Of a stretch of 64,000 nucleotides of DNA, positions 33,001 through 64,000 are shown one piece after another. Each line of letters opens with the position of its first letter. Positions within the stretch are counted from its first letter, which is position 1. A program made the translations under genes and the position numbers. Source of the stretch: Selaginella tamariscina (Eukaryota > Streptophyta > Lycopodiopsida > Selaginellales > Selaginellaceae); contig PUQB01000246.1 in assembly GCA_003024785.1 (NCBI GenBank), positions 248,001 to 312,000 of the forward strand. Reading direction: 5' to 3'. The notes below the pieces were generated by a model. It saw nothing but the letters and a program-made list of their open reading frames with translations, did no database searches and was not told the DNA's origin.

Positions 33001-33067
33001 GGCATGATTAATCTCCTCGAATCGATTCCTCCAGGACATGACTCGTCTGGACGGGATTAATCCCACC
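33001..33067. repeat. Two dispersed palindrome copies
   Basis: GGCATGATTAATCTCCTC at 33001-33018 and GGACGGGATTAATCCCACC at 33049-33067, 48 bases apart, with CGAATCGATTCC between them. The spacing equals that of the arrays at 55.7 and 60.8 kb. Confidence 0.65.
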
Positions 33068-41720: not shown

Positions 41721-41884
41721 CGCAAGGGTACAGCATGACTGGAGAATCAGCAAGTCCGGTTCTCCACCAAGGGAGGACTCATATCCGTTATTGCGAAACA
41801 GGTCTGGGCACCACCATCGGAATCCCGACCCCATGAATACCACCTCCCAGACTGGAGTGAGGGGTTGGACAATGAGGAAGAAGC

Positions 41885-42240: not shown

Positions 42241-42379
42241 TTGTGGACCCAGGATCAGTACGAGCTCTAGTAGAGATGCCACCCCCATAGAATGTCACGG
42301 AGCTCCAACGATTCATGGGGAAAGCAAGGTTCTATTGCAAGTTCATCCGATAGTATGCCGATAGGCCCTAGCCAATGAC

Positions 42380-42880: not shown

Positions 42881-43079
42881 CAAAGCCGCGCCCTTGCTGA
42901 CATACCTAACGTCGACCTCTTCGAAGCAACTTTCAAACAAGGCACCTCACAACGAACCATTGAGCTGGTAGATAGTGCAACATCCCAGCATGGCAACATC
43001 CAATATGATGCTACCTCACCAATGGATTAAGTGGACCCCCAAGACATTGGCAACACACAGACAAAGCCCCGCTCATAGG

Positions 43080-43965: not shown

Positions 43966-44289
43966 TAGAAACCTTCAATAATGGTACGGTTTGATTGGGA
44001 GCCAACAAGCAGCCGTTACGACAAAAGCTTAACACAATCACCTCAAGCCGTACATCCACCCATCAAAATTCCCCACTTAGGAGAACCAGGCAAAGAAGGT
44101 GAACCCCACGGCCCTTTGGGGCAAAGGCGCAACCAATTAAGAGCGGAAGGAAGGGGCACCCAATGGGGGAGCCGATACCCAGTCCTGCACTTGTGGCCAG
44201 CTCACAAGGTCACATGGTCCACGAGGGTGGACCACACACGTGAGCATGTAAAATGGGGCAAGCAGCGCCATTAATACCCTGTTATGGCA

Positions 44290-46335
44290 CATGGGTAGAC
44301 ACTTGGTCGTATCATATGAGGTAGGTCGCCATGTTGGCACCGTTCTAATAGAGACAACATGGGTGAACGAGGGCACGCTCACTCCCCTGCAAGACAATCT
44401 AACTACTCCCCAGCATCAGGAGGATGGAGTGGACCAAGCAGAACAAGCATATGGCCATTCAGCAGTCCAAGTGCTGTACGAGGGCCAAGATAGGATCATG
44501 GAACTCAAGGCTCCCAGGTTCTCCAGGTTTAAGGAATTGATTAACCGACCCGATGTCCGAAGGGTTCAAAAACAAATGCGGCTACTCAGACTCTACGAGG
44601 CCCCGTGGGGAGAAGTGGAGAAGCTCAAATAAACCAAGCGAGCCGGTCAATTCATCTAGATGGTACAGTTGGAGACGAGGAAAACTAAGCGAGCGATCTA
44701 TGATTCAGATTGGGCGGCTCAGCGTACTTCTACATTGACCTAAACTACCTGGCCGCCATGTGCAACCTGCCAAAGGACGATGTACCCTGGAAGAGCTAGA
44801 GGAGCCCAAATGCCAATGGTTGCCCACTAACCGGGACGAGATAGCAATGTCCAAACTCTCCATACAAGAAGGGGACAATGTGGACGAGTTCCTGGCGCTC
44901 ACAACTTTCATGTTCACCGGAAGAATAGAGAGGCCCGTCGCCACGCGACTGACAAACGCCCTGTGTAGCACATGGGATGGAGTTGCCATGGACTAGGCAA
45001 ACTGCCTCATGCACTATATGATCTCGACCCTAACTCGAGGCATCAATAGGATCCAAAAGGGGACCGAATGGAGGCTCACCACGGCTAGTCACCTCAGTGT
45101 AATGCTCGCTTGGATCATTAGTTGAACCCCGATTCCCTACCATCACAGTTCCATTCGGACACCACCGAAGGGTCGGGAAGAGGAGAGCATGCAGACAAGA
45201 GCCGAACCAACAAAGGAAAGCAGTCGGCCGCGCCAGAGTCATCATGAAAACTGGCAAGAGAAGACTCCCTGCCAAAGTAGGACTAGGGAAGGGAACCACG
45301 GGAAAGGATTGAAGGGCCCCAACCAAGGAGACCACACCGGTAGTTCTGGAAGCCTCTGGAATACCACCGGTACAAGGGCCGCAAGGCCCAGAAAAGTGTC
45401 CAATCGGTCCATCACAGGCCGCCAACCCGAGCAGCAAGGGAGATACAAACAACATGCTGGGTGGAGCTTACTAGCACTACAACGCCAAGGGGAAATGGGC
45501 CACCACAACACATCTTGAACTAGCCAAGGCCTTTGACCGGATCAGGAAGGCAGTAGCAATATACAACAACTTGGACCTCCATGGAGTGTCCGTAGAACAC
45601 GATGCTATAGTAACGGAGCTCACGAACCACTGCCAGACTGCTAAAAAGGAGGCAAGGGGGTATTTGGCACAGCTTCTCGAGGGGTCCAACTATGGGAAGT
45701 CGCGGAGACTAGGAGAAAGCAAGCAGAAGAAGCATGCCAACAGTTAACCGACTGCTTAGATCAACTACAGAGCAAGTACAATAGCCTCCAGAGGCTCCAT
45801 GATCAACTTAGACGAGATCATGAGTGGGCCACAATGGAAAGCAAATGGCAAGTTTTTGAGCTTGGCTCTAAACTTGAGCGACGTGAGGCAGAGCTCACGA
45901 AGGTCCACCAAGAGCTGGCAGCAGCCGAGCTGTACCGGTCCACTGGCTAGCTCGAAGCTATTCCCATGTTGCCTCGGCGAAACCCACGTCAAAGGCACAA
46001 TGGGCTATAGTTCCACTCCAACCACTTGAGGAACGCCAACCAATCAAGGCCCCGCAAGGCTCACCGCGGACCACCATGGAGTTAGAAGTGCACACCCAAC
46101 TACAGGCTCAACTCCTCGCAATAAGGGAACAAGAGTTGCAACGCTCTCGAGAGCAAACTCAGGAGCTGGAGGTCTAGCTTAAGCAGATTCAGGAGCAATA
46201 GGCAGGGTTTAAGGCGAGGCTACAGAGAGTGACTGTGCTACAAGACGCAACCATCACCGCCTTGAAGCAGAACCTAACCACAACAGAGAGTGAGGTCACC
46301 ATATACCGCCAGCACTATGGGGTTGACGGCTAAGG
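44290..46335 (+). pseudogene. Conserved downstream reading frame, F1 copy C
   Basis: Third copy of the frame seen at 4280-5945 and 17480-19265: LYEAPWGEVEKLK (44590), YNNLDLHGVSVEHDAIVTEL (about 45563) and a coiled-coil-like tail with ELEV..KQIQEQ and repeated ATITALKQNL-like residues (46150-46320). It lies after integrase, so in the autonomous form the element had a third ORF. No recognised family. Confidence 0.5.
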
Positions 46336-46375
46336 GAATGGCCTGAGGAAGTGCCAACGAATAAGTCCGGGCATC

Positions 46376-47066
46376 TAGTTGACAGTGGTTTGACCACCAT
46401 CAAACTACCAGCCGGCACGAACAGTGACAGGACGGATCGGCCAAGCGGTGAAGGTACAACATGTACAGAATGACGACAATAGCTGTTAGGCGGCACTTAA
46501 CCAAGCGTAGATCCGATCGTCCAAATCAACTACCAAGGTATTGGGGACAGCACACGTATGGGAGGCGCATAAATGCTACAGGCAGGACTCTATCACAAGG
46601 CAGTAGACCACTTAGAAGGTGCCACCTATACTTAGGATTTAGCACTAGCCGACCCACTATATAAGCAAGGAGGCTAATAGTGGGTCGGCGTCCTTCTAGT
46701 CTATTTTTTGTCTTGTATCTTGCTCCACCTTTTTGGAGCAGCTTTGTACTCAAGAAGGCAATATATACATATATACAAGTTCCTTCTGTTCACCACCTCT
46801 TCAGCTACTCTCCTCTCGCTCCGCTCTTAGGCCAAGAACGTACTCAGGGAACACACAGTAGCATTATTCTAAGAGAACTCCTCCACACCTGTACATAGAC
46901 CCTCGCACGTCCTGGTAGAGGCCATCTCAGCACCTTCTAGTACTCCCGAGGTAAGGCCGGCTCACCGGTGCAAACCCTCAGGATTGGATGCTATCCACAT
47001 CGTCCTAGCGACCACTGAGACTTCATAGCAAACATTACATCTGGCCTACAAAGTCCCCGACGACTA
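46376..47066 (+). mobile_element. 3' LTR of F1 copy C
   Basis: 691 bp; the terminal dinucleotides are mutated to TA...TA (TAGTTGACAG to GACGACTA), both G-to-A/C-to-T changes. TATA box at about 46656-46663 inside the inverted arms CCGACCCACTA and TAGTGGGTCGG. Confidence 0.88.
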
Positions 47067-47223: not shown

Positions 47224-47456
47224 TATGCACGTTGTAAATAAAATGGGCATGATACATAAAAATGGGAATATAAAATAAATTACTAATTAATACTTAAGTT
47301 TCAATTATTAATTAATTATTTAATAAATATATAATTAAGCCTTAAATATTAATTAATTAACAAATTAATCCTTCATTAACCTTACTTAGTAAAGAATATT
47401 CCAAAAATATCTTAGAATATTTGTATTTCTTCATTGTAAAAGTATTTTACAATAAT
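47224..47456. repeat. TIR-like terminus of cassette copy 3
   Basis: TATGCACGTTGTAAATAAAA followed by TGGGCATGATACATAAAAATGGG matches the left end of the MITE at 21489 and the sequence at 50522. AT-rich, non-coding, with repeated TTAATTAA stretches. It abruptly interrupts an FCP1 fragment. Confidence 0.65.
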
Positions 47457-48680
47457 CAAAAAATACTATCAAACATAATCACAAATGAAATTATTTCCTT
47501 CAACCGGTTAATCTATTTGTAATTACTTTCTCCTTAACCATATAGAGAAATCTCCTCATTTTATCTAAGTCATCACTTTCTAGATTAATCGATTCATTTT
47601 AATCAATATTTTATGTTGTTGCCACACCTAACACTCTCACAAATGCAGTTAGGAGTTGTCATCATTGTTAATATATAAGTTATAAAAAGAATAGGAATGC
47701 ATAAAGGCTTAACTAAAATTTGACGTTTCTTAATAATAATATTGTAGAGCGCCCAGTTGCTCTCATTTAATTTATAAAATTCAAAATCATGAGAGAAAAA
47801 ACGTTAGGATATGTTTTATATAGTGAATATTGCTCACAAAAGTTTTCAAAATTCTTCTTTCTGAGGCACATATCCAAGTAGTTCACTAGTTCATTCATGG
47901 TATTAATATCAAAATATGGGTCAAAAATAATTGGATGGATATAAGTAATGTTTTGGTTAAGTATAACCTTTTAAGGAGAATTGTTTACCACTGAAATATG
48001 TGCATTCTTCATTATCCTTAACTGATTCATCTCCCAATGAAGCCCAATTAATCTTTCATTCTTAAAGAAATGGTTTGCTTTCCTTTCTTACATTGTAAAA
48101 TTTGAGAGGTTTATAATCTTTGCTGATCAAAAATCCAATCTTTACAAATCACCTCTTATGCAACACTACAATGTTTGTTAAGCAAATTCAGCAGCGGTGT
48201 CAAGTTGTGAATTTGTATGATCAAATCCCCATAAATGCACGCATCTCCTTGAGCTTTTGAAAGAGCTGTTCAACCCAGACAAAAAATGATATCATGTCGA
48301 AATTTACCATGACAATCTTCCTGTTCAATTTCTTTTTCTTTGTCCTCAAACTTTTGTCGATGAAGAAAAACACCATTGACATCCAATAACACAATATGAC
48401 CATGGGTAACAAGGGGCAATGTTGCCTCTTGAATGCTTTGCAACTCACTTATTTGGTCCCTTTCACATTTATCTTTTGACGCTATATTTGTTGCCAATTC
48501 CTTTATCATTTACTTGTACATTATTCTTACAAGATTTGGATATTAAAGGAACCGGAAAAAGTAATTTAGAAACTGAAGGCAATATAAATGGTGATGCAAA
48601 AACTGATATAGTCCTCATAATAATGATGTTTTGAGCTACATTATTATTCATTTCCTATATAAACTATGTTATTCTGACAT
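47457..48680 (-). pseudogene. FCP1-like phosphatase pseudogene, cassette copy 3
   Basis: Same gene as 50809-51985. Readable: HIVLLDVNGVFLHRQKFEDK (48270-48509), FDMISFFVWVEQLFQKLKEM (48221-48448), MNNNVAQNIIIMRTISVFAS at the N-terminus (48469-48651). Motif I is D-V-N-G, like the plant FCP1/NIF clade. Frames are broken in several places. Confidence 0.65.
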
Positions 48681-48934
48681 GTGGCACAAGAAATTTTTGC
48701 CATACCTCTCTCTTACCTCATGCCACTACTGAAAATTCATGTTCTCAACTGTTTTATTGCATCTGTAAAATGATAATTAGCTGGCCTTATAATGACCAAG
48801 GTATATTTTTACCTTGTTAATGTATGACCCATGTTTGAACTAAAAACTTCTTTAATCCTTGAGAATTTATTTTCTATACAAATATAAATGAAATTACAAA
48901 AATGCCTTATGTTACACTCATTTACAACTAGTCG

Positions 48935-50517
48935 TCACTCGATTATCAATGCTTCTTCGTTGTTACCTTCAGAGTGAGGCGAAGAAGGTTTTAGCCGCTT
49001 GGAAGATCGTTCAACATCTTCCGTTTCTTCTGTTGATGTTTCCATTGTCAATGGAGTAAGTGAATGTTTTGTACTCCTTGAGATAACTTTCGGTGTAATA
49101 TTTAGTTCAAAATTGTTCTCAGACTCCAACATTGAACTAGATTCCTCCTCAAAGCTATCGCACTTCTTGAGAGGGAACTTCCCAAATACTCCTGTATGGG
49201 TTTAGGGTAGTCAATCAAAAACCTCTCTAATCCACTTGTTCAAAGTCCTCAACCATGGGTTATCCTTTTTAACAGCAAACACATATGTATCCCGAATGTA
49301 ACACTCCTTCAAGACAAGATCCCTAGTGCAGTAGTTAAAAACCCATGCATCACTGTGAAAACCCCTGATCAAGTTGACGATGCTTTGTGCAACCTGACTT
49401 GTAATGTTTGGATAGCGTACATTGCCAAATATGTCCCTCTCAGCTATCGATGTATTGGATGGAGGTTCAGGCTCGTTGGAGTGAAAAACTAATGCCTGGC
49501 CAATCATTTGAAAATTTGAAATTATTTGGTGCATTCTTAACAACCAAGTGAACAACCGTATCAAACACATGGAATTAGCATCGTTCATATAAAATCCAAT
49601 CCAACAATGTTTGTTCTTCTTGGCAAAGACGAAAGCGAAGGTATCGGTGACATGAGAAAAATCAAGAAAATAAATATCTGAAAACATAGGTATCAAATAA
49701 GTGTGCAAAAATTTAATAATAAATATATTCTCTGTACATGCTTGCACGGCTAAGCTTTTCCACCAATCCTCTAATGCCTTAATTGAAGAAGGATTTTTTG
49801 ACACTCGCCAATCCATCACAAACATTTGAAACGGTTTTCTGCAGGAAGTGATGTTACCCCATAAAGTCTCTGAATCCGGCAATAAACATCTGTAGGGCTT
49901 GTCATGATTTGTAGCATCCTCCTTTATAAAGTTCAACTCGTTTTTCTGCTACTGAAGGACTTCCATAAGAGAAAGCGTCATCACGACATTCTCCTTTCTG
50001 ATGTTGGCCGATTGGTTCACCGATTGGACAGCATATCATTGTTTGTCACATGTAGATATTTGCTAACCTCTTCATGTATTGAAGCCAAGGTTCAACCCAA
50101 TTTATGACAGTGTAATTCCCAACCACTCCTTGAAGTGCTTGATCGTCTTCTGCTTGATTGCCTTGAGATGAAAAGGAGAGGTGGAGCTGCTTTATTAATT
50201 TGTAATTTGCCATCAACCACCAAATCAGCTAACACATCCATCTCCTCCACTGTTGTTCCATTCAAAGGCTTCAACCATGTGAGCTTTGAAGTCATTGTCT
50301 ACATTCTTTGCAGCTTGAACATACTTTAACCTTCGGCGTCTTACTGGGTTTCTTTACAAACTTTTTCGAGGGGTCCCATTACTTGTTTGCTTCTTCTTCA
50401 GTGTTCCTTTTACAACAATTTTATAATCCCACCCATTTGGTAAAGACCTTGTCCTCAGGGCAAGAAATCAACATCATAGAAATGATGTTTTCTTCTTGCC
50501 CACCTGAGCAAAATGAA
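48935..50517 (-). pseudogene. Methyltransferase-like pseudogene, cassette copy 3 (5' half missing)
   Basis: A clean 241-codon frame at 49211-49936 corresponds to the methyltransferase-like half of the 52242-55378 gene: FQMFVMDWRVSKNPSSIKAL (motif IV position), DTFAFVFAKKNKHCWIGFYM, DIFGNVRYPNITSQVAQSIV, DAWVFNYCTRDLVLKECYIR (motif I position). The 53-bp intron of the other copy is retained because its donor GT is AA here, and it happens to stay open. The gene is cut at 50517 by the next cassette's terminus; the ParB-like half is absent. Confidence 0.65.
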
Positions 50518-50521
50518 CTAT

Positions 50522-50745
50522 TATGCACGTTGTAACTAAAGTGGGCATGATACGTGAAAATGGGAATATAAAATAAATTACTAATTAATACTTAAGTTTT
50601 AATTATTAATTAATCATTTAATTAATATGTAATTAAGCCTTAAATATTAATTAATTAATTAATTAATCCTTCAATAACCTTACTTAGTAAGGAATATTCC
50701 TAAAATATCTTAGAATATTCATATTATTCTAAAAATAGTTTACAA
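50522..50745. repeat. TIR-like terminus of cassette copy 4
   Basis: TATGCACGTTGTAACTAAAG then TGGGCATGATACGTGAAAATGGG, the same terminal sequence as at 47224 and the MITE at 21489. It splits the methyltransferase-like gene of copy 3 after GCAAAATGAACTA. I did not find a matching inverted end to the right within the window. Confidence 0.65.
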
Positions 50746-50808
50746 TAATGAAGAAATACTATCAAACATAATTACAAATGAAAATTTTCTTATCAACATG
50801 TTAATTTT

Positions 50809-51985
50809 TTATAAATACTTTCTTTCTATCATACAAAGAAATCTTTTCATTTTGTCTAAATCATCACTCTCCGGATTAATCAAATCATTTTGGTCAATAT
50901 CTTGATGTTGTTGCCACCACTTAACACTCTCACGAATGCAATTGGGAGTTGCCATCCTTGTTAATACATAAGATGTGATAAGAGAAGGTCTGCATAAAGG
51001 CTCATCTAAAAACTGACGTTCCTTAAGAATAATATTATAAAGCGCCCGGTTGCTATCCTTCATTTTATAAAATTCAATATCACGAGAAAGAAAAGCTTCA
51101 GGAAATGTATGATACGGTGGATACTGCTCACAAAAATTTTCGAGATTCTTCTTTCTGAGGCACGTATCCAAGTAGTTCACTAGCTCATCCATGATATCGG
51201 TATCAGAATATGGATCGAAAGTGATTGGATGAATACAAGCAATGTTTTGGTTGAGCATAGCCTTCTGAGGAGAGTCGTCTACTACTAACATCTGTGTTCT
51301 TCATTATCCTTAAGCGACTGATCTCCCCATGAGTCCCAATTATTCTTTCATTCTTGAAGAAGTATGGCTTGCTTTCCTTTCTTATATTGTGAAATTCGAG
51401 AGGTTTATAACACATTCGCTGGTCAAAAATCCAATCTTTACGAATCACTCTTCTGCAACACTACAATGTTTCTTAAGTAAATTCAACAGCGGTGTTAAGT
51501 TATGAATCTGCATGCATGACCAAATCCCCACAAGCGCACCCATCTCCTTAAGCTTTTGAAAGAGACGATCCAACCCTGGACGAAAAATAATATCATATCG
51601 AAATTTACCATGACAAGGAATGAAATCTCCTTGTTTGATTTCTTTTTCTATCCTCGGGCCTTTGTCGATGAAGCAGAACACCATTGACATCCAACAACAC
51701 AATATGGCCATGAGTAACATGAGATAGCGTTGCCTCTTGAATACTTTGCAAATCACTTGTTTGCTCCCTTTCACATTTATCCGTTGCCACTATCTCGTTG
51801 CCTATCCCTTCATCATTTAATTGTACATCATCCTTACAAGATTCAGATATTGCATGCGCTGAAGAAATTGATTTCGGAACTGAAGCCAATAAAAATGATG
51901 ATGAAGTGGCCCCCATGGTAACGATGTTTTGAGCTGCATTATTATCCATTTCCTGCATGAACTCTGTCATTCTGACATGTGGCAC
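50809..51985 (-). pseudogene. FCP1/NIF-type HAD phosphatase-like gene, cassette copy 4 (best preserved)
   Basis: From the likely start at 51985 (MPHVRMTEFMQEMDNNAAQN): HIVLLDVNGVLLHRQRPEDR (motif I, D-V-N-G), FRPGLDRLFQKLKEMGALVG and IWSCMQIHN (motif II), KDWIFDQRMCYKP, then VVDDSPQKAMLNQNIACIHP (the DDSP motif III/IV) and MDELVNYLDTCLRKKNLENF to a stop at 50809. The order matches the plant FCP1-homology family, which dephosphorylates Ser/Thr, classically the RNA polymerase II CTD. DxN in place of DxD is seen in that plant clade. At least three frameshifts (about 51610-51770, 51445, 51290). About 250 bases separate it from the gene upstream on the same strand. Confidence 0.75.
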
Positions 51986-52241
51986 AAGAAATTGTCGCCA
52001 AACCCCTCTCTTACCTCATGCAATGCTGAAAATCCATGTTCTCAATTATTTCATTACATCTGCAAAATGATAATTAGCTGACCTTAAAATTATCAAGGTA
52101 TATTATTTACCTTGTTAATGTGTGACCCATGTTTGAACTAAAAGCTTCATTAATCCTTGAGAATTTATTTTCTGTACAAATATAAAAGAAATATACAAAA
52201 ATGCCTTATGTTACACTCATTTACAACTATTCATCACTCTA

Positions 52242-55200
52242 TCAATTCATTATCAATTCTTCTTCGCTATTACCTTCTGAGTGAGGCGAAGAAGGTCTAA
52301 GCCGCTTGTGAGATGGTTCAAGATCTTCTGCATCTTCTATTGATGTTTCCATGGGTCCTGGAGTGTGCGAATGTTCTGTACTCCTCGAGATAACTTCCGG
52401 TCTAATATCTGATTGAAGTTCGTTCTCAGACTCCGAGATTGAACCAGATTCACCTTCAGAGCTATCGCACTTATCTGGAGGGAACTTTCTCAAATACGCC
52501 TTTATGGAATCGTTGGGGTACTCAGTTGAGACCCAATCTATCCACTTGTTCAGGTCCTCAACCATGGTCTTATCCTTTTCAACGGCAAACACACATGTAT
52601 GCCGAAGGTAACACTCCTTCAAGACGGACCCCCTAGTGCAGTAGTCAAAAACCCACGCATCACTGTGAGGACCCCTAATCAAGTTGACGATGCTCCGTGC
52701 CGCTTGACTTGTAATGTTTGGATAACGTACATTGCCGAATACGTCACTCACCTATCGGTGTATCGGATGGAGGTTCAGGGCCGTTGGAGTGCAAACAGAT
52801 GCCTGGCCAGTCATTTGGAAGCTTGAAATTGTTTGGCGCATTCCTAACAACCAAGTGAACAACGGTATCAATGCACTTGGGATTAGCATCGTTCATATAA
52901 AATCCTGTCCAACGATGTCTATTCTTCTTGGCGAAGGCGAAGGCAAAAGTATCGGTGACATGAGCAAGAATCAAGAAATAAATACCTGAAAAAGTAGGTA
53001 TCAGTGAAGAGCGCAAGCATGAATTCAATAATAAATACCTTCTATGTATATGCTTGCACGGCTAAGTTTCTCCACCAGATCCTCTAGTGCCCTATCTGTC
53101 GAAAGATTTTTTGACACCCGCCGATCCATCACGAACAATTGAAACGGTTTCCTACAAGCAGTGATGTTACCCCATAAAGTCTCCGAATCTAACAACAAAC
53201 ATCTGTAGGGCTTGTCGTGATTCGTAGCATCCTCCTTTATAAGGTTCAATTCGGTTCTCCGCTGCTGAAGGACTGCCATAAGAGAAGGCGTCATCCCAAT
53301 GTTCTCCTTTTTGGCGTTGGCGTGCAATAGATTCTTGCCTAGATCTTCCGATTGGTTCACCCATTCGACAAGCATATCATCGTTCGTCACATGCAAATAT
53401 TTGCTGACCTCTTCATATGTTGAAGTCGAGGTCCAACCCAGTTTGTGGCAGTGTATTCCCAACCACTCCTTGAAATGCCTGACCGTCTTCAACTCCATTG
53501 CCTTGAGATGAAAAGGAGAGGTTGGGCTGCTGTTATTAATTTGTAGTTTGCCATCGATCACCAAATCAGCCAAGACTTCCATCTCCTCCATCGTTGTTCC
53601 ATTTAAAGGCTTCAACCATGTGAGCTTGAAATCGTTGTCTACATCCTTTGTAGATTGAACAGACTTAGCCTTCGGCGTCTTACTGGGTTTCTTTGCAGAC
53701 TTTTCTGAGGGCTCCCCTTCACTTGTCTGCTTCTTCTTCAGTGTTCCTTTTGAAAAGGATTCCATAATCCCCAACCATTTGGCAAAGATCCTATCTTCGG
53801 GGCAAGAAATCAACATCATCAGAAAGGATGTTTCCTTCCCGCCCACCTGGGCAAAATCAACTGCTGCAATTTCTTCAACTCTCTGAGGAAAAAGACAGAT
53901 TAATATACCGGCGAGATAAATCCCGCCCAAACAATTTGCTTACCCGGTATTCCGCAGATTGTGTATTCCCTGCGGTAGCTCTTTGTGGTCGCTGAAGAGA
54001 TTCCCACACGGCTCGCGTGTGTTTAAACTTCTCCCATATTTTGCTGTTGTAGTGGTTGGTGTCGGCAGCGTCCCATTCCGCCGATAACTTATGGTACTGC
54101 TCGATTGTGAGATTCGGCTTAGCTAAAAACGCCGATCTTTTTGTCAGCTTCTCACGGGTATGCTCGGAAAGTTTTGTTGCCATCGTTCCTTTGTTGTGTT
54201 CCTCGAGAAGTCGTTGGGCTGCCGTTATTGTGTGCTGGCCACTAATGATGTAGTACTTGATAGATTTTTATTCTCCGTCTGAATCTTCATGAGTTGTTCT
54301 GGTGTTGTGATCCAGACTTTGTCAGCGCCCTTCCTTCTTTCATAGTATGGACACAAAACAGCATTATGTGGAACGGTATAAGAATTGTCGTCCTTCATCT
54401 TCTCCATGAGCTCAGCTACACGTTCCTGGTTGAGTGGCCTGTAATTGAAGTTTGGGTTGACGCTGCAATATTTAACCCTACAAGGATAAATCTTATCATC
54501 CAACATCATTTCCTTGTGACTTATTGCAGCATGAGATGCCACAGGTGCAGCTGACAAAACGATTGATGATTTTCTTTTGCGATCCGAATCAACATGTGTG
54601 ATCCCCGACTGCAGCTGTTCTAGTGTTCTCGGCACACTCTTCCAGCTCCCGAAGCTCCTAAGCAAATTGAACGTGATCTGTAGAGAACCTGAGACCGAGC
54701 CACCTCTCAATCTCCTTATGATGTCGCTGTGTTCTTCTTCAATGTGAAGAGGGAAGATTGCTCCACTTGCTGATTTTCTGTATTGTGAAGCAATATCTCC
54801 TGACAATACACCTACTCGATGAGTCTGAAGATTTCGAAGTAGACATCCAGATGGATCCCCTCCATAGATGGGCTTTCGTTGAGTTGAAGAAGAACTCCAA
54901 GGTCAACATCATTAGTGAACACGTGAACGTCATTATCCACAAGTCGACAAAACCACCCGAAATTAATGTTGTAACTGACGACCTCTGGATCCGAGAACGT
55001 GACATTGGATGGAACAAGGCATATGTGTCGAGCATCGTCCAATCTGGGTTCGCAGCCTGCTTTCGGGTGCTTGACTAGCGAATCTACTTTCCATTGTTTT
55101 GCTTGTCCATGAGATGTGACAGAGGTTAATTTGACAGCACCATGGTTGCTCCAATGCGCTTCCCATTTATCTTAAAATATGGCCAAGTTGATTCCAGAAT

Positions 55201-55378
55201 CCCCCTGCCCATCTCTTCTCCTGCTCTTGTCTTTAATGTCACCTCAATTCCACATCTGAATACAAAAATGATTAGTTCAAGTATCCGAGTATAACAGATT
55301 TTATTTTAATTCTTACCCAGAATTTGACGACGACTCCATACTAATGACTCGATCTCCTTGTTTGATCAAATCGTCCTT
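52242..55378 (-). pseudogene. ParB-like plus beta-class DNA methyltransferase-like gene, at least four exons
   Basis: Minus-strand exons: 55317-55378, 53944-55255, 53039-53882, 52242-52985; introns 55256-55316 (61 bp), 53883-53943 (61 bp) and 52986-53038 (53 bp) are GT-AG with consistent phases. The ParB-like part (54225-54480) reads VNPNFNYRPLNQERVAELME, ITTPEQLMKIQ, then QHTITAAQRLLEEHNKG, like the ParB/Srx nuclease-fold GxxR region. The methyltransferase-like part has LFVMDRRVSK where beta-class N4/N6 enzymes have (D/S)PP(Y/W), then FGNVRYPNITSQAARSIVNL and DAWVFDYCTRGSVLKECYLR, VFAVEKD in place of VLDPFxGSGTT...GIE.D, that is, motif IV before motif I. A Lys/Ser-rich linker lies at about 53650-53760. 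Frameshifts near 52750 and 54238, and a stop at about 54812. Prokaryotes carry ParB-methylase fusions; the plant function is unknown. Confidence 0.6.
53905..53925. repeat. Palindrome copy inside an intron
   Basis: CCGGCGAGATAAATCCCGCCC lies within the 61-bp intron 53883-53943 of the methyltransferase-like gene and is a one-to-two-change version of the 18-bp core, occupying a third of the intron. Confidence 0.75.
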
Positions 55379-55681
55379 CTGCAAAATAATACACTATGAA
55401 TACAAATATATAAAAACGCACACACACTTGTATAAACCCGAATATACAAAAATAATACACAGAGAGAAGTAGACGTAATTAACTGTCCGAAGCTCACATT
55501 TGTGTTAGTGCAAAAGAAAGATAACATTTCGTTTTAGAACCACCACAAATGTGAGCTCTGGACAGTTTTACATAGATTCCTAGCTTTTACTCGAAATATT
55601 ATGATAAGATGATAAAAGTAAATAAAATGAGATATGCAACTTATATATACTAATACACATATATATTCACATGGAAGGTGC
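55379..55681 (+). other. Non-coding stretch upstream of the methyltransferase-like gene
   Basis: The first bases are the end of an intron or promoter region for the minus-strand gene. AT-rich, with an inverted pair CACATTTGTG.../CACAAATGTGAGCTC near 55495-55556 (GAAGCTCACATTTGTG and CACAAATGTGAGCTCTGGAC). No gene seen. Confidence 0.45.
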
Positions 55682-57077
55682 GGCGGGATTAATCTCGCCA
55701 CCCCTTCAATGCCTCCTGAAAGAGTGGGCGGGATTAATCTCGCCACCTTTCTGGAGGCCTTGAACGGGAGTGCGGAATTAATCTTGCCACCCTTCTCGGT
55801 CTCAGAGAGAACTGGGCAGGATTTATTTCTCACACCCCTTCAGTGACTCCAGAAAGGAGGCGGGATTAATCTCGCCCACCATGTAAGGGATGGTTAAATG
55901 AATTTCCCCACCCTTCCCAATTCTCTCCATTGGTATGTTAAACCTTCTACGTCTCAGACAGAAACGTTTGGGATTGGTCCGACTCACCAATGGAGAAAAA
56001 AGGAAGGGTGGCGGGATTCATTCCTCCAACAGGCATTGAAGACTCGGCGGGATTAATCCCGCCGCCCAGGGCCTTCACTCGGTCCCTATGCGGCGGGATT
56101 AATCCCGCCGGACGCCAATTCCCTGCGGAATCGGGCGGGATTAATCCCGCCGCCTAGGCACTTCAGGCAGGCCAATGGCGGCGGGATAATCCCGCCCGAT
56201 TCCGCGCAGGGCATGCGCGGGGATTAATCCGCCTCCCAGGCCCTTCACTCGGGCCTTAGTCGGCGGGATTAATCCCGCCGAACGCCAATGCCCTGTGCGA
56301 AATCTTGCGGGATTAATCCCGCCGCCTAGGCCCTTCAGGCAGGCCAATGGCGGCGGGATAAATCCCGCCCGATTCCGCGCAGGGCATGCGTACGCGGCGG
56401 GATTAATCCCGCCCACCATGTAAGGGATGGTGAAATTAATCCCACCACCCTTCTCAGTTCCCTCCATTGGTATTTTGTAAACCTTCTCCGTCTCAGACAG
56501 AGTTAGTCGGGATTGATTCAACATACCAATGGAGGAAAAAAGAAGGGTGGCGGGATTAATCCCGCCACCGGGTAATGAAGGTTCGGAGAGACTAATCCCG
56601 CCGCCCTCTCGTAAATCATGCGCTCACACATATATATTGGCTGCGGCATTTTGAACAGGGATGGGTGGGGGCGGGATTAATCCCGCCGCTTATATCCTGC
56701 GGAAGTGCCTGAGCGGCGGGATTAATCCCGCCGCCCTCCGCGAAGGGCATGAGCGTGGGGCGGATTAATCCCGCCGTTCATGTCCTGCGTGAATTCCCTG
56801 GGCGGCGGGATTAATCCCGCCCTTACGCGCAGGACATGTCATGCGCCTTCGGTTAGCCTCATGGCGGGGATTAATCCCGCCCATTAGGCCTTCACACAGG
56901 CCATTGCGGCGAGATAATCCCGCCGCATTCCGCGCAGGCATGGTGAGCGGCGGGATTAATCCCGCCGCCCATAGCCTGCTGAAGGCGGCGGATTAATCCG
57001 CCCCATGGCCCAATCATATGTGGCGGGATTAATCCGCGCCGAGGCCATAAACCTATAGCGCGGGATTAATCCCGCCG
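55682..57077. repeat. Array 1 of the 18-bp palindrome GGCGGGATTAATCCCGCC
   Basis: About 28 copies counted by eye, roughly a dozen of them perfect, at near-regular steps (for example starts at 55682, 55727, 55771, 55814, 55859; 56047, 56091, 56135, 56178, 56218, 56261, 56308, 56351, 56396). Changes in one arm are often matched in the other or shorten the core (GGGATAATCCC). Spacers are GC-rich, partly related to one another in direct and inverted order, and non-coding. The density of 18-bp perfect dyads is far above chance. Confidence 0.95.
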
Positions 57078-57085
57078 CTCGAGGG

Positions 57086-57936
57086 GCTTAGCGTGTGTGC
57101 GAGAGATAAAATTAATAAATAAAAAAATTATACAGATAAAAACACACACATATATGTGTGTGTGTGTATATATATATATATATTATATATGTATGTATGT
57201 ATGTATGTATAGGAGTGTACGTGTGTGTGTAAGAGATAGATAAATAAATAAAATTATACAGTACTGGTACACATAATATATGTGTACATAGGTATATATA
57301 TGTGTGTATATGTATATCGTGTGTATGCGTGTGAGCGAAACAAATAAAATCATACAGATAAACAAACACACACACACATATATATACATAGGAGTGTGCG
57401 TGTGTGTGCGAGAGATAAAACTAATAAATAAATAAAATTATACAGATAAACACACACATATATATATGTGTGTATATAGATATATAACCCATAGAGAAAG
57501 AGAGAGAGTCTGTGAATATATAAGCATATATATAACTAGTGTTGTATATATTTGTTAATATGCATATTATATATACATATATGTAAAGCAGTGTGCGTGT
57601 GTGTGGAAGAGATAGATCAATAAAAAAAATTATATAATACTGGTACACATAATATATGTATGTATATATGTATATAGGTATATATATATGTGTATATGTT
57701 ATTGTGTGTATGCGTGTGTGAGCGAAACAAATAAAATCATACAATAAACAAACACACACACACACATATATATACACAGGAGTGTGCGTGTGTGTGCGAG
57801 AGATAAAACTAATAAATAAATAAAATTATACAGATAAACACACACATATATATATGTGTGTATAGATATATAACCCATATGAATATATAAGCATATATAT
57901 AAACTAGTGTTGTATACTATTTGTTAATATGCATTG

Positions 57937-57978
<42 letters not shown>

Positions 57979-58244
57979 AAGCAGTGTGCGTGTGTGTGGG
58001 AGAGATAGATCAATAAAAAATTTTTTATAGATACTGGTACACATAATATATGTATGTATATATGTATATAGGTATATATATATATGTGTATATGTATATC
58101 GTGTGTATGCGTGTGTGAGCGAAACAAATAAAATCATACAGATAAACAAACACACCCACACACACATATATATACACAGGAGTGTGCGTGTGTGCGAGAG
58201 ATAGATCAATAAATAAAATTATACGCACACTCCTATACATATAT

Positions 58245-58290
<46 letters not shown>

Positions 58291-58300
58291 ATCTCACTGT
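57086..58300. repeat. Compound microsatellite region with ~390-bp tandem periodicity
   Basis: TA, CA/GT, GAGA and TAAA runs. A longer block beginning GGAGTGTGCGTGTGTGTGCG and containing AATAAATAAATAAAATTATA repeats at about 57390 and 57780, with related blocks at 57070, 57200 and 58180. The open frames across it encode only Tyr/Ile/His/Thr low complexity and are not genes. Confidence 0.85.
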
Positions 58301-59175
58301 GTGCACAGCCGCCGCCGCCGATTTCACAGCCGCCGCCTCTTGAAACCCTAAGAATATACCTAAACCCTAAAGGAATTAAATATATATATTAACCCTAATA
58401 GAATATTCCTTCTGAGAATATATTTAAACCCTAAAAAGAATAAAATATAGATTCGCCCTAAACGAATATTCTTTCATTATATTATTAGCGCGTGCGTGTG
58501 CGTGGGTGTATCACATACACCCCAAAAATATAAATCATGCAGGGATTTAACATGTGTGTGTCCATGAGAGTGTTAAAGTTCATGTGTATCAATACATACA
58601 TACACATTGCATATATTAATACACATAATATATACATACACAGTGTATACACACAGACATACATACATATTACATGGGTTTAGGGTTTAGGGTTTAGGGT
58701 TTTGGATTTAGGATGGATCATGTGGTGTGTATGTATGAGAGAAGAGAGAGTGTTGAAAATTATTTTTGTACACATTGCATATATTAGTACACATATATAC
58801 TTACACATATTATACACAGATATACATACATAGTATATGAGAGAAGAGAACAGTACATATTATGGATCATGCATAGTGTGTATTATACACACAGACATAC
58901 ATACATATTAGTACATAATATTAGAGAGACCGAGTACATATTATAGATCATGCATGGTGTGTATGTTTGAGAGAGAGAGACAGTACATATTAACATGGAT
59001 CATGCATGGTGTGTATATATGAGAGAAGAGAGAAAGTACACATGTGTTACATATTAGGGTTTAGGGTTTAGGGTTTAGGATGGATCATGCATGGTGTGAA
59101 GAGAGAGTGTTGAAAAATTATTTTTTGTACACACATGTATACACAGGGTTTTAGGGTTTAGGGTTTAGGGTTTGC
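58300..59175. repeat. GCC run, AAACCCTAA boxes and interstitial TTTAGGG repeats
   Basis: GCCGCCGCCGCCG at 58308-58320, AAACCCTAA boxes at 58336-58370, and short tandem TTTAGGG arrays at 58675-58704, 59055-59080 and 59147-59174, the Arabidopsis-type telomere unit. Between them GGATGGATCATGCATGGTGT and GAGAGTGTTGAAAA recur, so larger tandem units are present. Not a chromosome end, since unique sequence follows. Confidence 0.85.
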
Positions 59176-59389
59176 TCCCAACAGCTTAATAAATATTACA
59201 CATGAAATTCAATGTGTTACATACACACAGATTGAGTACATATATTATACATGCGTTGAACATGATGTTTTCAATAAAGAAGCAACATATTTCTTCAGTT
59301 TGGTTTAGGGTTGTGCATGTGTGTGCATATGTGTTTTTGTAAGTTCTTGTAATGCGTGTGTAAATTTATGATTGTGTTTATATATGTGT

Positions 59390-60200
59390 GCAAAACAAAC
59401 ATCGAATAATTAAGAAAAATATATTATAAACACACTATGAACATATTTTAAATTATACATAATAATATATGATTTTTATCTAATATATAGCCATATATAG
59501 TTTTAATAATATATATTAATTTAATATTGATAAAAAGGTTTAACATTGAAAATATTCTTGAAATAATAAGAAATTAATTGAGAAAATCCCATTAATATAT
59601 ACAAATGTAAATTAAGTACTCAAATAATTAACTAAATTAATTATCATAATCATGTTTAATATTGGAATATTCTTGGAATAATAAGAAAATAATAAAGAAT
59701 ATCCCATTAATATAAAGAAGATTAATTACTCAAGTAATTAAGGAAATGATAAATATACACACTACGAACATATTTTAAATTATACATAATAATACATCAT
59801 TTTATCTAATATATAGTCATATATAGTTTTAATAATATATATTAATTTCATATTGATAATAAGGTTTAACACAGGAATATTCTTGAAATAATAAGAAATT
59901 ATTAAGAAAATCCCATTAATATATACAAATGTAGAATAATTATTGCAATAATTAAGAACAAGACTAATTTAATTATGATAATCAGGTTTAATATTAGAAA
60001 TATTTCTTCAAAATATCGAGTAATTAAAATAAAAAGAATATCCCATTGATACTAGGAAATGAAAACTAAATACTCGAGTAATTAAGAAAATAATAATAAT
60101 AAACAGACTATGAATATATTTTAAATGATACATAATAATATATCAATTTATTTATTGTATAAGTATATATTTATATATATATATATATAAATATACTTGA
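59390..60200. repeat. AT-rich ~330-bp tandem repeats
   Basis: The block CATATTTTAAATTATACATA through AAGGTTTAACA and ATATTCTTGAAATAATAAGA occurs at about 59441, 59771 and, partly, 60113, with intermediate partial copies of AAAATCCCATTAATAT. No coding content. Confidence 0.75.
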
Positions 60201-60765
60201 ATACTAAGAATGTAGAATATAGTCTAAAATTTCGTAATATTAAACAACTTGAATCACTTGAATAACATTAAATGCAATTTTAAAATACTCATTGGAACTG
60301 GAGAGTATATATGTCAGAGTGTCGGATATTTGTGTCAACTCATCTTTTATTTTCTGTTCTTTTTAAAAAATTTGAATTTCTGACATATGTATTGTCGGTC
60401 TGACATGTAAATTTGAAAATGCATTTAATTTCCCACTCAAATTCAGATCTGGTTCTTTCTCCGGCAAAGGTTTCTTCATTTCTGTATTTTTCACTCTTTA
60501 GATCTTCTTTTTCCTTCATAGTGATCATCTCAGGAGCGAGATTAAATTGGGTGCTATTCTTTTTAGGAAAGCACGGCGCCTTCAGTGCTGTTTACAAGTA
60601 AGTATTATAAACAAATTTAAAATACTTATAAAGATTCACTCTCTTACATTCTCTCTTAAAATTATAATTTAGGGGTTTAGGAATGCATTAGGATTATAAT
60701 ATATTCCGTTAGGGATTTATCCCGTTTAAATATCCTTTTAACTTAATATTCTAGGTTAACCGGGG
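60201..60765 (+). other. AT-rich DNA with a possible isolated kinase-like mini-exon
   Basis: Mostly featureless. At 60565-60600 the plus strand reads LGKHGAFSAVYK, preceded by TTTTTAG and followed by AAGTAAGT, which could be an exon with a protein-kinase glycine-loop. No further kinase domain is found before array 2, so I make no gene call. Confidence 0.2.
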
Positions 60766-61277
60766 CAGCGGGATTAATCCGGTTATTTCTTTTTCGCCTC
60801 TTCGAAGAGATGGCGGGATTAATCCCGCCACCATCTCTCGGGCAATGCTTCTCCGCCACTGAAAAAGAGTGGCGGGATTAATCCCGCCAATAACCTTCTC
60901 AACTGATGAAGAGTTACTAGAATTTATTAGAAAGAGTTGTCGGCGGGATTAATCCCGCCAATCATTTTAGGAGGCAGGGAAGGGGTGGCGGGATTAATCT
61001 CGCCACCACTTCCCTGTTTTAAGGATTTGGGGACAGGATTTATCCCGAGATCTCTTTGAAATCATAGTTTTGGAGAGAGTTATGTGCGGGTTTAATCCGC
61101 CACCCATTCCCCGTCGTAAGAATTGTGGGCGGGATTAATCCCGCCTTGGACTCCCTCCGACAAGGAAGAGCCGGCGGGATTAATCCCGCCGCCTCTTCCT
61201 CCTCGGGGGGAGTCCCGGCGGGATTAATCCCGCCGACTCATCCTCGCCGGAGGGAGTCCGGCGGGATTAATCCCGCC
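60766..61277. repeat. Array 2 of the palindrome, with long complementary flanks
   Basis: Eleven copies: cores at about 60767, 60812, 60871, 60942, 60987, 61031 (degenerate), 61084 (degenerate), 61128, 61173, 61217, 61260. Several have flanks that extend the dyad: AGGGAAGGGGT...ACCACTTCCCT around 60987, GAGAT...ATCTC around 60812, and at 61173 about 25-base arms (GGACTCCCTCCGACAAGG left, CCTCCTCGGGGGGAGTCC right). Such DNA could form hairpins of 40-70 nt. Confidence 0.95.
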
Positions 61278-61439
61278 CATCAGTTGTATTAATCAAACAT
61301 GAAATATTATCTCTAAACATAATTATGTATTATTGCATATGCATATTATTAAGTAACCGTAATTCAGATTTCTTAGAAATATTGCATAAACAGATATCAT
61401 AAATAATACAATTATTTATGTGCATGACAATATGTTTAA
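61278..61439 (+). other. Short AT-rich spacer
   Basis: Nothing recognised between array 2 and the start of the coding-like region. Confidence 0.4.
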
Positions 61440-62033
61440 TACTGGAGATAAAGTATGTCTTCTTCGGAACAACGAGATAGTTGGCACTGGAACTGTGGAA
61501 GTTTGAGATAATAATGCATCATGTCACAATATTGCCCAAGGATCTTGTGTGTACGTATGGGTGAACACCATTTACAAGCATGTTGAGGTTCTGGGAATAG
61601 AATTTGAGGAGGGTTCTCCTGTATTGTGGAATTTGGATGAAGTCAAGGCTGACACAGAATATGCAAGTCACAAACAAATAGTAGCACGAGTTTACCAGAT
61701 GATGGCTTGCCTGCTGTGATGGATGAGGTGATTCTCTTTCTTCGTGAGATTGAAGTCGGAAGAGGCATCATCACAGCTATAAATCCAATGGAAGCAGTGT
61801 CAGAAGAGAAACTAGGGTCCGACTTCGTGGGTGTAGTTGTGATTGAGGTTTCACCTAATGGCACATTGTATCCTGGATCCCTCGTGAGGTGGCGAACATC
61901 TGAATTAAGACGGCAAAATGGTTCAACATATTCTGGGTTGGATTTCAATAATAACAACCCGGAAGAACAACTCATATTTAAAGGTTCCTTGCATTGGTCT
62001 TATTATAAGAAAAAGGCGATTCATGGGTTGTAG
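61440..62033 (+). pseudogene. Uncharacterised N-terminal region of the right-edge gene, two related segments
   Basis: Segment 1 (61443-61680) reads TGDKVCLLRNNEIVGTGTVE, stop, then VYVWVNTIYKHVEVLG and GSPVLWNLDEVKAD. Segment 2 is an open frame at 61707-62033: MDEVILFLREIEVGRGIITA, INPMEAVSEEKLGSDFVGVV, VSPNGTLYPGS. Both have the same pattern (V-x-L-L..E/N-I-x-x-G-x-I/V, then a second strand-rich half), suggesting a duplicated beta-rich domain. I do not recognise the family with confidence. One stop and one frame change separate the segments. It runs into the DUF7869-like part. Confidence 0.4.
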
Positions 62034-64000
62034 ATCTTCCCCTGCAAGTTTCAGCAAGAGGGTAAAGATGGATCCTACATCTTCCGAAAGTGTTACGAGC
62101 ATTTTCACGATTGACTGTTGCAAGAAGAAGTGTTGTCAGATGGCAGACCGGAATGAAATTACCCAATGTAGACATGTCTTTCGTATGCTCACCCAAAAAA
62201 AAGGCATGAGTTTGTATATGCTGCACTAACTGGGTGTATTGATGGAATGGCCTCGGACACAGGTTATCAGAGTACATCCATGGTATTTAATAAGGTGGCC
62301 ATCTGCTTCAAAGCTTGGTACAGTATATACGGGATCCCAAAGACCACGTTCTACCATCGGAGGGATGAGTGGCTAGGTGGAGCGCGAACCTCAGTTCATG
62401 GGAACACTCGCTTGGTCAAAACCCGCTCTCACATCATGGTAGCCATAGAGATACTCAAGGCTTTTGTGGAAGCAAATGCAGACAGGATGCCTCACAATGC
62501 CGAACCACAAATGCAGGGTCAGGGAAAATCTCAAGGTTTTGCCTTCAATCTACACTCAATTGAAGCTGTGTGAACATGTGAACAAGTGCTTTAGTTTGAT
62601 GGGGCTCCAAGCAATCTGCACTGGTACCTTCAACAACATATGGAATACTCATTTTAAGGATATGAAGATTGCAAAAACACTCTAGCTTTTCCAAGTGTGA
62701 CACTTGTACATCATTGAAGGCTGCAAAGGCTTCTGCAAAAACCTTGGTGGAGATCACTGCCATTCAAAGAAGATGGAGGCCCACATGATTGCACAACAAA
62801 CTTGCCGGTCTCAGTACTATGCACACCGCATGCTTTCTGTGTCACGCCCATCAGAGTACATGTGCTTGATCCATGATAAGATGGATCATTCAAAGACCAG
62901 CATTCCAAAACTCTTTACAACACCAAAGTGCCTTGGAAATGTCATGAAACTTCCGATTTCATTGACAGGTGTGCTAACACATGGACACGGTTGTGAGTCA
63001 TATGGACACTTTTCACTTCCACATTGGTCTAGCGACTCCAATTTCACTATTGGGTCGTTAGCCATGTGTTTCAGAAACCTTGAAGCCCACTCACATACAA
63101 GTCCTATCAGTGATCTCAAAGTGAAGAACACACCTTCAACCTTTACATAATGCTCTCATGAACACGTCTGCACTTGAGGCTACTTGGGAATATGAGAGGC
63201 ATTGTCAGCAACCTGCACAAAAAACAGATGGCCCTGTTGAGAGTTCAGGTTCAGTGGAGGGATCTAGCTCAAATAGTGTACATGTGTCCTCAACATCAAA
63301 TAAGCTTCCTCGTCATTTGCTTTTACAAATGGATAATTGGCAGGCGAGAACAAAAATAGGTAAATCATTTTACTTAAGGGTTTCTCAAGCTCATACTTAC
63401 TTTTATTTTCTAGATATGTGCTAGCATACTTGTCAATGCTTGTTGCCAAAGGTGTGTTTGAAACAATCATGCTCAGTTTCCTTATGGTTGGTCACACTCA
63501 TGAAGATATTGATGCGTTCTTCAACAAGGTCTCCAACTCTACAAAAAGGACAAGTGCACTTACTTTATCGCATATGATGAATCTTTTTGAAAATTGCATC
63601 TCCAAAAAAAGTTGTTCTTTGCTTGTGACTGAGGTGCCAGACTTCAAAAAATTTCTCAAGGAGTATATAAAGAAGGGAGTGATTCTTTAGTTGGTCACCT
63701 TGTGCCGCTACAATTCATTTTCTCCATACGAGATGGTATACCTATTATGCAGTACAAGTTACGGCCATCAGAGCATGAGTGGTTACCGAAAGAGGGCTTA
63801 ATGCTCTTCAAAAGTGGAGAGGATGGAAAGCCACTTCTCCCAGAAGGACAACCAGACCCTATTCCATTGAGTGCCCAGCTCAAGGAACAAGAGGTTATTA
63901 TTGATGGCATCAAAAATATGTGGCATGGGTTCAAAAATCGATGCCAAAGAATTCTGATAAGGCAACTGGTTACTCAGAACTATATAAGCATGTGGTCGAC
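62034..64000 (+). pseudogene. DUF7869-like protein gene, broken, continues past the window
   Basis: Pieces in family order: SIFTIDCCKKKCCQMADRNE (Cys-rich start, 62097), YGIPKTTFYHRRDEWLGGAR and SVHGNTRLVKTRS (62318-62425), CFSLMGLQAICTGTFNNIWN (62588), HDKMDHSKTSIPKL (about 62874), LTGVLTHGHGCESYGHFSLP (62965), LLLQMDNW (63323), intron 63360-63413 (GT-AG, 54 bp), then RYVLAYLSMLVAKGVFETIM and LSFLMVGHTHEDIDAFFNKV (63414-63530), and, after a frame change, RDGIPIMQYKLRPSEHEWLP (63735). These match a family of unknown function often annotated DUF7869, abundant in some algae, mosses and invertebrates. At least four frameshifts or stops. The 3' end is off-window. Confidence 0.65.

What the first reader, a model, noticed from the sequence alone, without database searches (positions are those of the whole stretch)
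55682..57077. Dense array of an 18-bp perfect palindrome at ~44-bp steps
About 28 copies of GGCGGGATTAATCCCGCC or near variants stand at near-regular spacing with GC-rich spacers in otherwise AT-rich DNA. It superficially looks like a CRISPR array, but the repeat is a full palindrome, spacers are related to each other, and this is plant DNA. The closest parallels I know are GC clusters and double-hairpin elements of organelle genomes or small palindromic elements of bacteria. Each core contains two TAATCC and two GGCGGGA half-sites, so it could also be a protein-binding array; that part is speculation.
Basis: partly seen in the sequence, partly recalled or inferred. Interest (0 to 1): 0.88.

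Follow-up and report, generated by a model that had tools for sequence, protein, structure and literature searches.

The report
Palindrome arrays inside a plant transposon
The dense run of 18-letter palindromes is real and belongs to a 14.5-kilobase jumping gene, estimated at about two thousand copy-equivalents in this plant-like genome, where it sits just upstream of the element's two genes and most likely serves as a landing strip for a DNA-binding protein that keeps the element active.

Summary
The array is real: 27 cores of GGCGGGATTAATCCCGCC within 4 edits at 55682-57076 (shuffles at most 1), modal step 44-45 bp. The 18-mer occurs 27,128 times exactly in the 300.7-Mb assembly (59,903 with up to 2 mismatches; reversed control 0). 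It is half of a pair: a second array (about 60764-61277) faces it across 3.7 kb of AT-rich DNA. Both lie inside a 14.5-kb DNA transposon (window 50523 to 1,029 bp past the window) with imperfect terminal inverted repeats and 4-bp target-site duplications in 3 of 3 copies read at both ends. Each array lies just upstream of one of two divergent genes: a DUF7869 transposase-like gene, and an otherwise unmatched gene ending in a NIF/FCP1-like phosphatase domain. The core is conserved while spacers turn over; left and right spacers are largely unrelated, so the core is nearly all the two arrays share. Arrays also fold back strongly. Best reading: dense binding sites for a sequence-specific protein, probably element-encoded, controlling expression or silencing, working like the VANC targets of Arabidopsis VANDAL elements but with unrelated genes. 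Binding is inferred, not shown. Not CRISPR, not organellar.

The parts
50519..50522 (.). 4-bp target-site duplication TATT, left copy (right copy lies just past the element's right end, outside the window)
   Evidence...CTATT|ATGCACG at left...TTGCAT|TATTGC at right
50523..50549 (+). left terminal inverted repeat, ATGCACGTTGTAACTAAAGTGGGCATG; start of the 14.5-kb element, which runs 1,029 bp beyond the window end (G000:C556:313029)
   Evidence: this copy's right end reverse-complements to ATGCAATTGTAACTAAAATGGGCATG
50600..55339 (-). left gene (several exons, frame-broken in this copy; outer limits approximate); ATG read by eye at 55339; C-terminal part has a NIF/FCP1-like phosphatase domain; a stretch reading ISGQHTITAAQRLL looks ParB-like by eye only
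   Evidence: NIF E 7.6e-12 in the young copy L043; no other match over a curated cut-off
53910..53927 (.). single palindrome variant (2 mismatches) inside a 61-bp stretch read by eye as a GT-AG intron of the left gene
   Evidence: same site in 8 of the fetched copies (L009, L010, L014, L015, L016, L018; L043, L045). In L045 an open frame runs through it, so the intron is a prediction
55640..55649 (-). TATA-like TATATATAAG, 32 bp from the array edge, oriented towards the left gene
   Evidence: read by eye
55682..57076 (.). array 1: 27 cores of GGCGGGATTAATCCCGCC within 4 edits
57077..60763 (.). AT-rich centre between the two arrays, with dinucleotide repeats and interstitial TTTAGGG-type runs
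60764..61277 (.). array 2: 10 cores within 4 edits, spacers largely unrelated to those of array 1
61432..64000 (+). right gene: Transposase_23-like N-terminus (below cut-off), Cys cluster, DUF7869 with candidate catalytic residues IHDKMD / MDNCAGENKN / GHTHEDID; continues past the window; 154 bp from array 2 to the ATG read by eye

Best explanation
The array is one of a pair of cis-regulatory binding-site arrays carried inside a large, recently active DNA transposon. Shown: the element has termini, target-site duplications and thousands of candidate copies; one array lies just 5' of each of its two divergent genes, and one more core lies in a predicted intron. Shown: the 18-bp core is conserved while interleaved spacers change and turn over, and it is nearly all that the two arrays have in common. 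Inferred: each core is the palindromic site of a dimeric DNA-binding protein, most likely encoded by the element itself (the left-gene product or the N-terminal part of the transposase). Dense occupancy over both promoters would switch on element expression and keep silencing (DNA methylation, heterochromatin) away, giving family specificity through site density, as VANC proteins do on VANDAL elements. The palindromic core lets units be copied in either orientation, which would explain the two-way spacers and the foldback structure as a by-product of array growth.
For: Element anatomy. 10 of 10 fetched C1 stretches carry genes of this element; in the exact-match listing 6 of these 10 show two clusters 3.0-3.8 kb apart. 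4-bp TSD in 3 of 3 copies with both ends read: TATT, ATAA, AGAT. Array 2 at the expected place upstream of DUF7869 in 6 of 7 further copies, 5 to 19 cores. Core versus spacer in 45 alignments with spacer difference up to 10%: 2.09% versus 5.62%, rest of element 2.42%, core lower in 43 of 45 (alignments share sequences, so the Fisher value is not a true probability). Best-match identity of spacers within an array 0.71-0.85, between arrays 0.62-0.70, shuffled letters (left against right) 0.59-0.63, in 4 elements. Predicted-intron core and TATA-like box. VANC precedent (motif arrays in introns and upstream regions that gain and lose units): PMC5735166 and PMC10398659, passages read.
Against: No binding, expression or methylation data. 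Neither element protein has a detected DNA-binding domain over cut-off (HTH_psq only at E about 0.1-0.25). The left protein has no homologue found and its model is useless (pLDDT 31). VANC motifs lie in one orientation and 'palindrom' does not occur in the two VANC papers. Strong foldback of the arrays leaves a structural role open. Arrays 1 and 2 are not wholly unrelated: one 76-nt stretch matches in inverted orientation at 82%, and in the window copy right spacers match left ones (0.70) almost as well as each other (0.71). Cores were picked by similarity to the consensus, which inflates column conservation. The commonest core changes, C>T at position 14 (38 of 215) and its mirror G>A (27 of 215), fall in a CCG context and partly reflect inherited variants, so they are no clean methylation signature. 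In L045 the intron core lies in an open frame.
Confidence: 0.5

Rival explanations
1. The arrays are internal transposase-binding sites that help bring the element's ends together or mark it for excision, like subterminal TnpA sites of En/Spm or the repeated THAP sites in Galileo's long inverted repeats.
For: The neighbouring gene is transposase-like; clustered sites for one's own transposase are known (Galileo, PMC3688188, passages; Spm recalled).
Against: The arrays lie about 5.2 kb and 3.8 kb from the ends, not subterminally, and lie next to the two promoters instead.
Confidence: 0.18
2. The core is the site of a host transcription factor. GGCGGGA/TCCCGCC resembles an E2F half-site, so the element would be expressed in S phase.
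For: Sequence resemblance to the E2F core (recalled). Transposons spreading E2F sites in Brassica are recalled; that paper was not among the 6 listed of 31.
Against: The flanking T letters of the usual plant E2F site (TTTCCCGCC, recalled) are not matched (AATCCCGCC), and an array of this size exceeds what a host promoter needs (opinion).
Confidence: 0.12
3. The arrays act as structure: foldback hairpins in DNA or RNA, for instance as a source of small RNAs, a replication-fork block, or a boundary.
For: Single-strand folding z -15.9 and -15.7 for parts of the two arrays; shuffling spacer letters while keeping cores weakens folding in 7 of 7 array segments from 4 elements, z -5.5 to -13.4; spacers are slightly self-complementary (0.12 against 0.035 shuffled).
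Against: Permuting spacer order costs less (z -0.3 to -3.6), so a definite long hairpin is kept weakly if at all; the spacers that would pair are the fast-changing part; no Rfam match at gathering thresholds.
Confidence: 0.12
4. A neutral minisatellite that grew by slippage and recombination and has no role.
For: Unit number varies widely between copies, as in satellites; units occur in both orientations.
Against: Core differences are 2.7-fold lower than in interleaved spacers, and two arrays with largely unrelated spacers share the same 18 bp.
Confidence: 0.06

Closest known systems
VANDAL transposons and VANC anti-silencing proteins (Arabidopsis)
   Same: Short motif repeated at high density in non-coding parts of a DNA transposon (introns, upstream regions), with gain and loss of units between copies (PMC5735166, passages).
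   Different: Here the motif is an 18-bp palindrome in foldback arrays, the TSD is 4 bp, and no MULE transposase, DUF1985 or DUF287 match was found in the pieces scanned; no protein has been shown to bind.
Sola superfamily DNA transposons
   Same: 4-bp TSDs, terminal inverted repeats, sizes that can exceed 15 kb, presence in the moss Physcomitrella but rarity in flowering plants (PMC10741241, passages).
   Different: Relationship of the DUF7869 protein to Sola transposases was not tested; internal palindrome arrays are not mentioned in the passages read.
Galileo and Foldback elements
   Same: Tandem repeats in transposon arms holding several binding sites for the element's transposase (PMC3688188, passages).
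   Different: Those repeats are in the terminal inverted repeats; these arrays are central.
En/Spm (CACTA) TnpA sites (recalled)
   Same: Clustered short sites near the element's promoter that regulate expression and methylation.
   Different: Subterminal 12-bp motifs, not central palindromes; ends and TSD length differ (recalled).

Membership tests
VANDAL/VANC system | dense short motif in non-coding regions of the transposon | tested here: met
   arrays upstream of both genes and a core in a predicted intron
VANDAL/VANC system | MULE-type transposase, TSD of 7-12 bp (TSD length from PMC10741241) | tested here: not met
   4-bp TSDs in 3 of 3 copies; Pfam shows DUF7869, no MULE domain
VANDAL/VANC system | VANC protein with DUF1985/DUF287 | tested here: not met
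   no such Pfam match in the left-gene pieces scanned; a protein too diverged for Pfam is not excluded
Sola superfamily | 4-bp TSD with terminal inverted repeats | tested here: met
Sola superfamily | transposase homologous to Sola, DDD catalytic triad | not tested
   candidate IHDKMD, MDN and GHTHEDID residues conserved among relatives; no Sola protein compared; model of a relative poor, no PDB match at E 0.001
CACTA (En/Spm) | CACTA termini and 3-bp TSD (recalled) | tested here: not met
   termini ATGCA...TGCAT, TSD 4 bp
CRISPR array | unrelated spacers of near-constant length, cas genes | tested here: not met
   spacers resemble one another; flanks are transposon genes in a 300.7-Mb assembly; no separate cas search was run
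ParB/parS-like partition | ParB-fold protein encoded beside the array | tested here: inconclusive
   motif seen by eye only; no ParB match in Pfam, NCBIfam, PHROGs or PDB sequences; model pLDDT 31

The most novel reading that the evidence does not exclude
The left gene encodes a diverged ParB-like clamp (by-eye motif NPNFNYRPLNQERV...YYIISGQHTITAAQRLL) that loads on the palindromes as bacterial ParB loads on parS and spreads over the element, so that a eukaryotic transposon carries its own centromere-like nucleoprotein system for anti-silencing, clustering or copy transmission.
Probability: 0.06. Interest if true: 0.93.

Novelty: new variant of a known kind. Interest (0 to 1): 0.6.

Why it matters
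A two-gene element of roughly two thousand copy-equivalents, up to about a tenth of this genome if all were full length (estimate), carries some 29 copies of one palindrome per element next to its own promoters. If the sites bind an element protein, this is an independent, structurally different counterpart of the VANC system, and the many near-identical copies with open reading frames make it testable. It would also be a natural high-density binding array with tens of thousands of sites in one genome.

Tried and rejected
CRISPR, organellar GC clusters, bacterial palindromic elements: rejected by anatomy. Bacterial or viral occurrence of the motif: one site in one IMG/VR viral contig, and no match in genome contigs to the pattern of a full core followed within 15-40 bases by GGATTAATCC; both tools warn that records near the window's own genome may be left out. 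Rfam at gathering thresholds: nothing. Literature held by the tool: the 18-mer and 'DUF7869' occur in 0 papers.

ParB reading of the left protein: homologue searches found nothing (E 0.001, 7,998 candidates scored, E 1, 334 candidates), no profile match over a cut-off (the few hits listed are unrelated families at chance level), model pLDDT 31. Kept only as the novel case. Structure of the DUF7869 relative P0001: pLDDT 56, 0 PDB matches at E 0.001. Core counts by fuzzy regex were too low because of its best-match flag; replaced by Hamming scans and edit distance. The first core/spacer comparison (core 3.33%, spacer 14.41%, rest 3.10%) mixed out-of-register units; one search kept only alignments with at least 100 core and 100 spacer columns and spacer difference up to 10%.

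The species was not identified; a paper search on one moss genome gave nothing useful. Papers were seen as listings only, apart from the four whose passages are cited.

Full report
OBSERVATION. The window lies at G000:C556:248001-312000 in an assembly of 300,702,823 bases and 1,391 contigs. Between 55682 and 57076 there are 10 exact copies of GGCGGGATTAATCCCGCC, 21 with up to 3 substitutions and 27 within 4 edits. In 100 letter shuffles of the region the mean was 0.08 sites and the maximum 1. Pooled over 11 loci the commonest steps are 44 and 45 bp (57 and 59 of the steps under 400 bp), about 4.2 helical turns, so neighbouring cores would not face the same side. A second array, 10 cores within 4 edits, lies at about 60764-61277. 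The 18-mer occurs 27,128 times exactly and 59,903 times with up to 2 mismatches in the assembly; the pattern read backwards occurs 0 times.

WHERE IT LIES. The first 100 exact sites listed, all on contig C1, form 10 groups and one lone site; 6 of the 10 groups are two clusters 3.0-3.8 kb apart, 4 are single clusters. I fetched a stretch for each of the 10 groups; the lone site at C1:2071485 was not fetched. All 10 share the window's flanking genes: nine at about 92-98% over their longest gene-flank matches and one (L017) at about 75-78%; the AT-rich centre is less alike. Following the shared sequence outward gives the ends of a mobile element: left end at window 50523, right end at C556:313029, a length of 14,507 bp. 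The termini are imperfect inverted repeats: left ATGCACGTTGTAACTAAAGTGGGCATG; right, reverse-complemented, ATGCAAGTTGTAACTAAAATGGGCATG in 3 of 6 right ends seen, the other 3 differing by one base. Three copies with both ends read are flanked by 4-bp duplications: TATT (window), ATAA (C1, about 13.6 kb) and AGAT (C929).

COPY NUMBER AND ACTIVITY. Seven elements with both arrays average 28.9 cores at up to 2 mismatches and 13.4 exact cores. Dividing the genome totals by these gives about 2,080 and 2,020 element equivalents, or very roughly 30 Mb if all were full length (inference; the seven are not a random sample). First-look candidates number 3,174 for the right gene's DNA, 5,147 for a left-gene segment and 4,250 for DUF7869; only the best were scored. 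Of the 150 left-gene matches scored, 87 by my count of the listing share one bit score (475.1) with no internal stop, and DUF7869 matches lie in open frames of up to 1,092 codons. This points to a recent burst.

GENES. The right gene (ATG at 61432, 154 bp from array 2, read by eye) encodes a protein of about 1,000 residues, split by one predicted intron, with DUF7869 (E 1e-26 in L028). A Transposase_23 match is weak in this copy (E 0.073) and in a relative (E 0.0029), both below cut-off, and absent at E 1 from the L018 and L012 copies. Conserved IHDKMD, (M/L)DN and GHTHEDID residues shared with relatives look like a DDE/D triad. Relatives: 14 proteins at E 0.001 among 7,997 scored, 7 of them from the liverwort Riccia sorocarpa, the rest without organism names. 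The left gene (minus strand, ATG read by eye at 55339) has short predicted introns and a C-terminal NIF/FCP1-like phosphatase domain (E 7.6e-12). Its N-terminal part has no match over any cut-off (the strongest listed is E 0.034). A TATA-like TATATATAAG lies 32 bp from array 1 towards this gene (by eye).

ARRAYS ARE PROMOTER-PROXIMAL. Array 1 lies next to the left gene (343 bp from core to ATG) and array 2 next to the right gene, with AT-rich DNA between. In seven further DUF7869 copies I looked at the place where array 2 should be: 6 of 7 have it (5, 9, 13, 14, 15 and 19 cores at up to 4 mismatches) and 1 has none in the 1.4 kb fetched. One more core, with 2 mismatches, sits in a 61-bp stretch that reads as a GT-AG intron of the left gene, at the corresponding place in L009, L010, L014, L015, L016, L018, L043 and L045. 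In L045 an open frame runs through it, so the intron is a prediction.

THE CORE IS WHAT IS KEPT. In the units taken from 11 loci (310 at up to 4 mismatches), core columns are 84-100% conserved and flanking columns at most 59%, though units were chosen by their core. The fairer test compares aligned positions between element copies. A first pass gave 3.33% (core), 14.41% (spacer) and 3.10% (rest), but included out-of-register alignments. Restricting to 45 alignments with spacer difference up to 10% gave 2.09%, 5.62% and 2.42%, with core below spacer in 43 of 45. The alignments share sequences, so the Fisher value there is not a true probability. Spacers resemble each other within an array (best-match identity 0.71-0.85); between arrays the values are 0.62-0.70, against 0.59-0.63 for left versus shuffled right, in 4 elements (the opposite direction was not shuffled). 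The separation is not complete: in the window copy right spacers match left ones (0.70) almost as well as each other (0.71), and a 76-nt stretch of array 1 matches array 2 in inverted orientation at 82% (pair I1), so some shared ancestry is visible.

FOLDBACK. Single-stranded folding of 56040-56420 and 60760-61285 gives z of -15.9 and -15.7 against 100 dinucleotide shuffles each. Keeping the cores and shuffling spacer letters weakens folding in 7 of 7 segments (three of array 1 and array 2 of the window, and one each of L018, L013 and L012; z -5.5 to -13.4), while permuting spacer order matters less (z -0.3 to -3.6). Spacers are about equally similar to their neighbours in direct and reverse-complement orientation (0.18 and 0.16 for the next, 0.24 and 0.25 for the next but one, shuffled -0.02). 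I read this as a result of growth by copying units in both orientations, which a palindromic core permits; a structural role cannot be excluded.

MECHANISM. A palindrome kept at high density next to two promoters and in a predicted intron, amid fast-changing spacers, is the signature expected of a binding array for a dimeric protein. The nearest worked example is VANC on VANDAL elements: the passages I read describe a short motif at high density in introns, intergenic and terminal non-coding regions, often within tandem repeats that gain and lose units, bound by an element-encoded anti-silencing protein. I infer that an element protein here plays a similar part. The steps 'some protein binds the core', 'it is element-encoded' and 'it counters silencing' are inferred with falling confidence (about 0.75, 0.6, 0.4). 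The element is not filed as a VANDAL: TSD length, transposase domain and the VANC domains were tested and not met.

CLASS OF ELEMENT. 4-bp TSDs, size and kinship with a liverwort protein fit Sola (passages of PMC10741241), but no Sola transposase was compared, so I do not file it there.

LIMITS. No expression, chromatin or binding data; species unnamed; structure models poor; some fetched stretches read N. Gene starts, introns and the TATA-like box are read by eye.

Noticed in passing
window 47225-50519 and 35809-37022: Further partial copies of the same element's left end, about 82-83% alike to other copies; the 47225 copy ends where the main element's left flank begins.
   Followed up: partly
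window 24852-25176 and 33050-33067: Decayed single cores; 25031-25176 matches 55481-55626 in reverse at 75%, so this looks like a relic of the element's left-gene leader.
   Followed up: partly
window 58676-58712, 59054-59079, 59145-59173: Short runs of the plant telomere-type repeat TTTAGGG inside the AT-rich centre of the element.
   Followed up: no
window 55480-55570: An inverted repeat (AACTGTCC...GAGCTCACATTTGTG and its complement, by eye) in the leader of the left gene, able to form a hairpin.
   Followed up: no
window 50809-52015: The transposon's left gene ends in a NIF/FCP1-like phosphatase domain, to my knowledge unusual cargo for a DNA transposon.
   Followed up: partly
window 29871-31449: Open frames that read like a subtilisin-type protease gene (by eye, not searched), probably a host gene.
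   Followed up: no
window 1-6000, 8400-12000, 15000-20000, 34900-35540, 39000-46700: Open frames that read like LTR retrotransposon proteins (by eye, not searched).
   Followed up: no
L029:146-163: A single exact 18-mer in one IMG/VR viral contig; only one site, probably chance.
   Followed up: no
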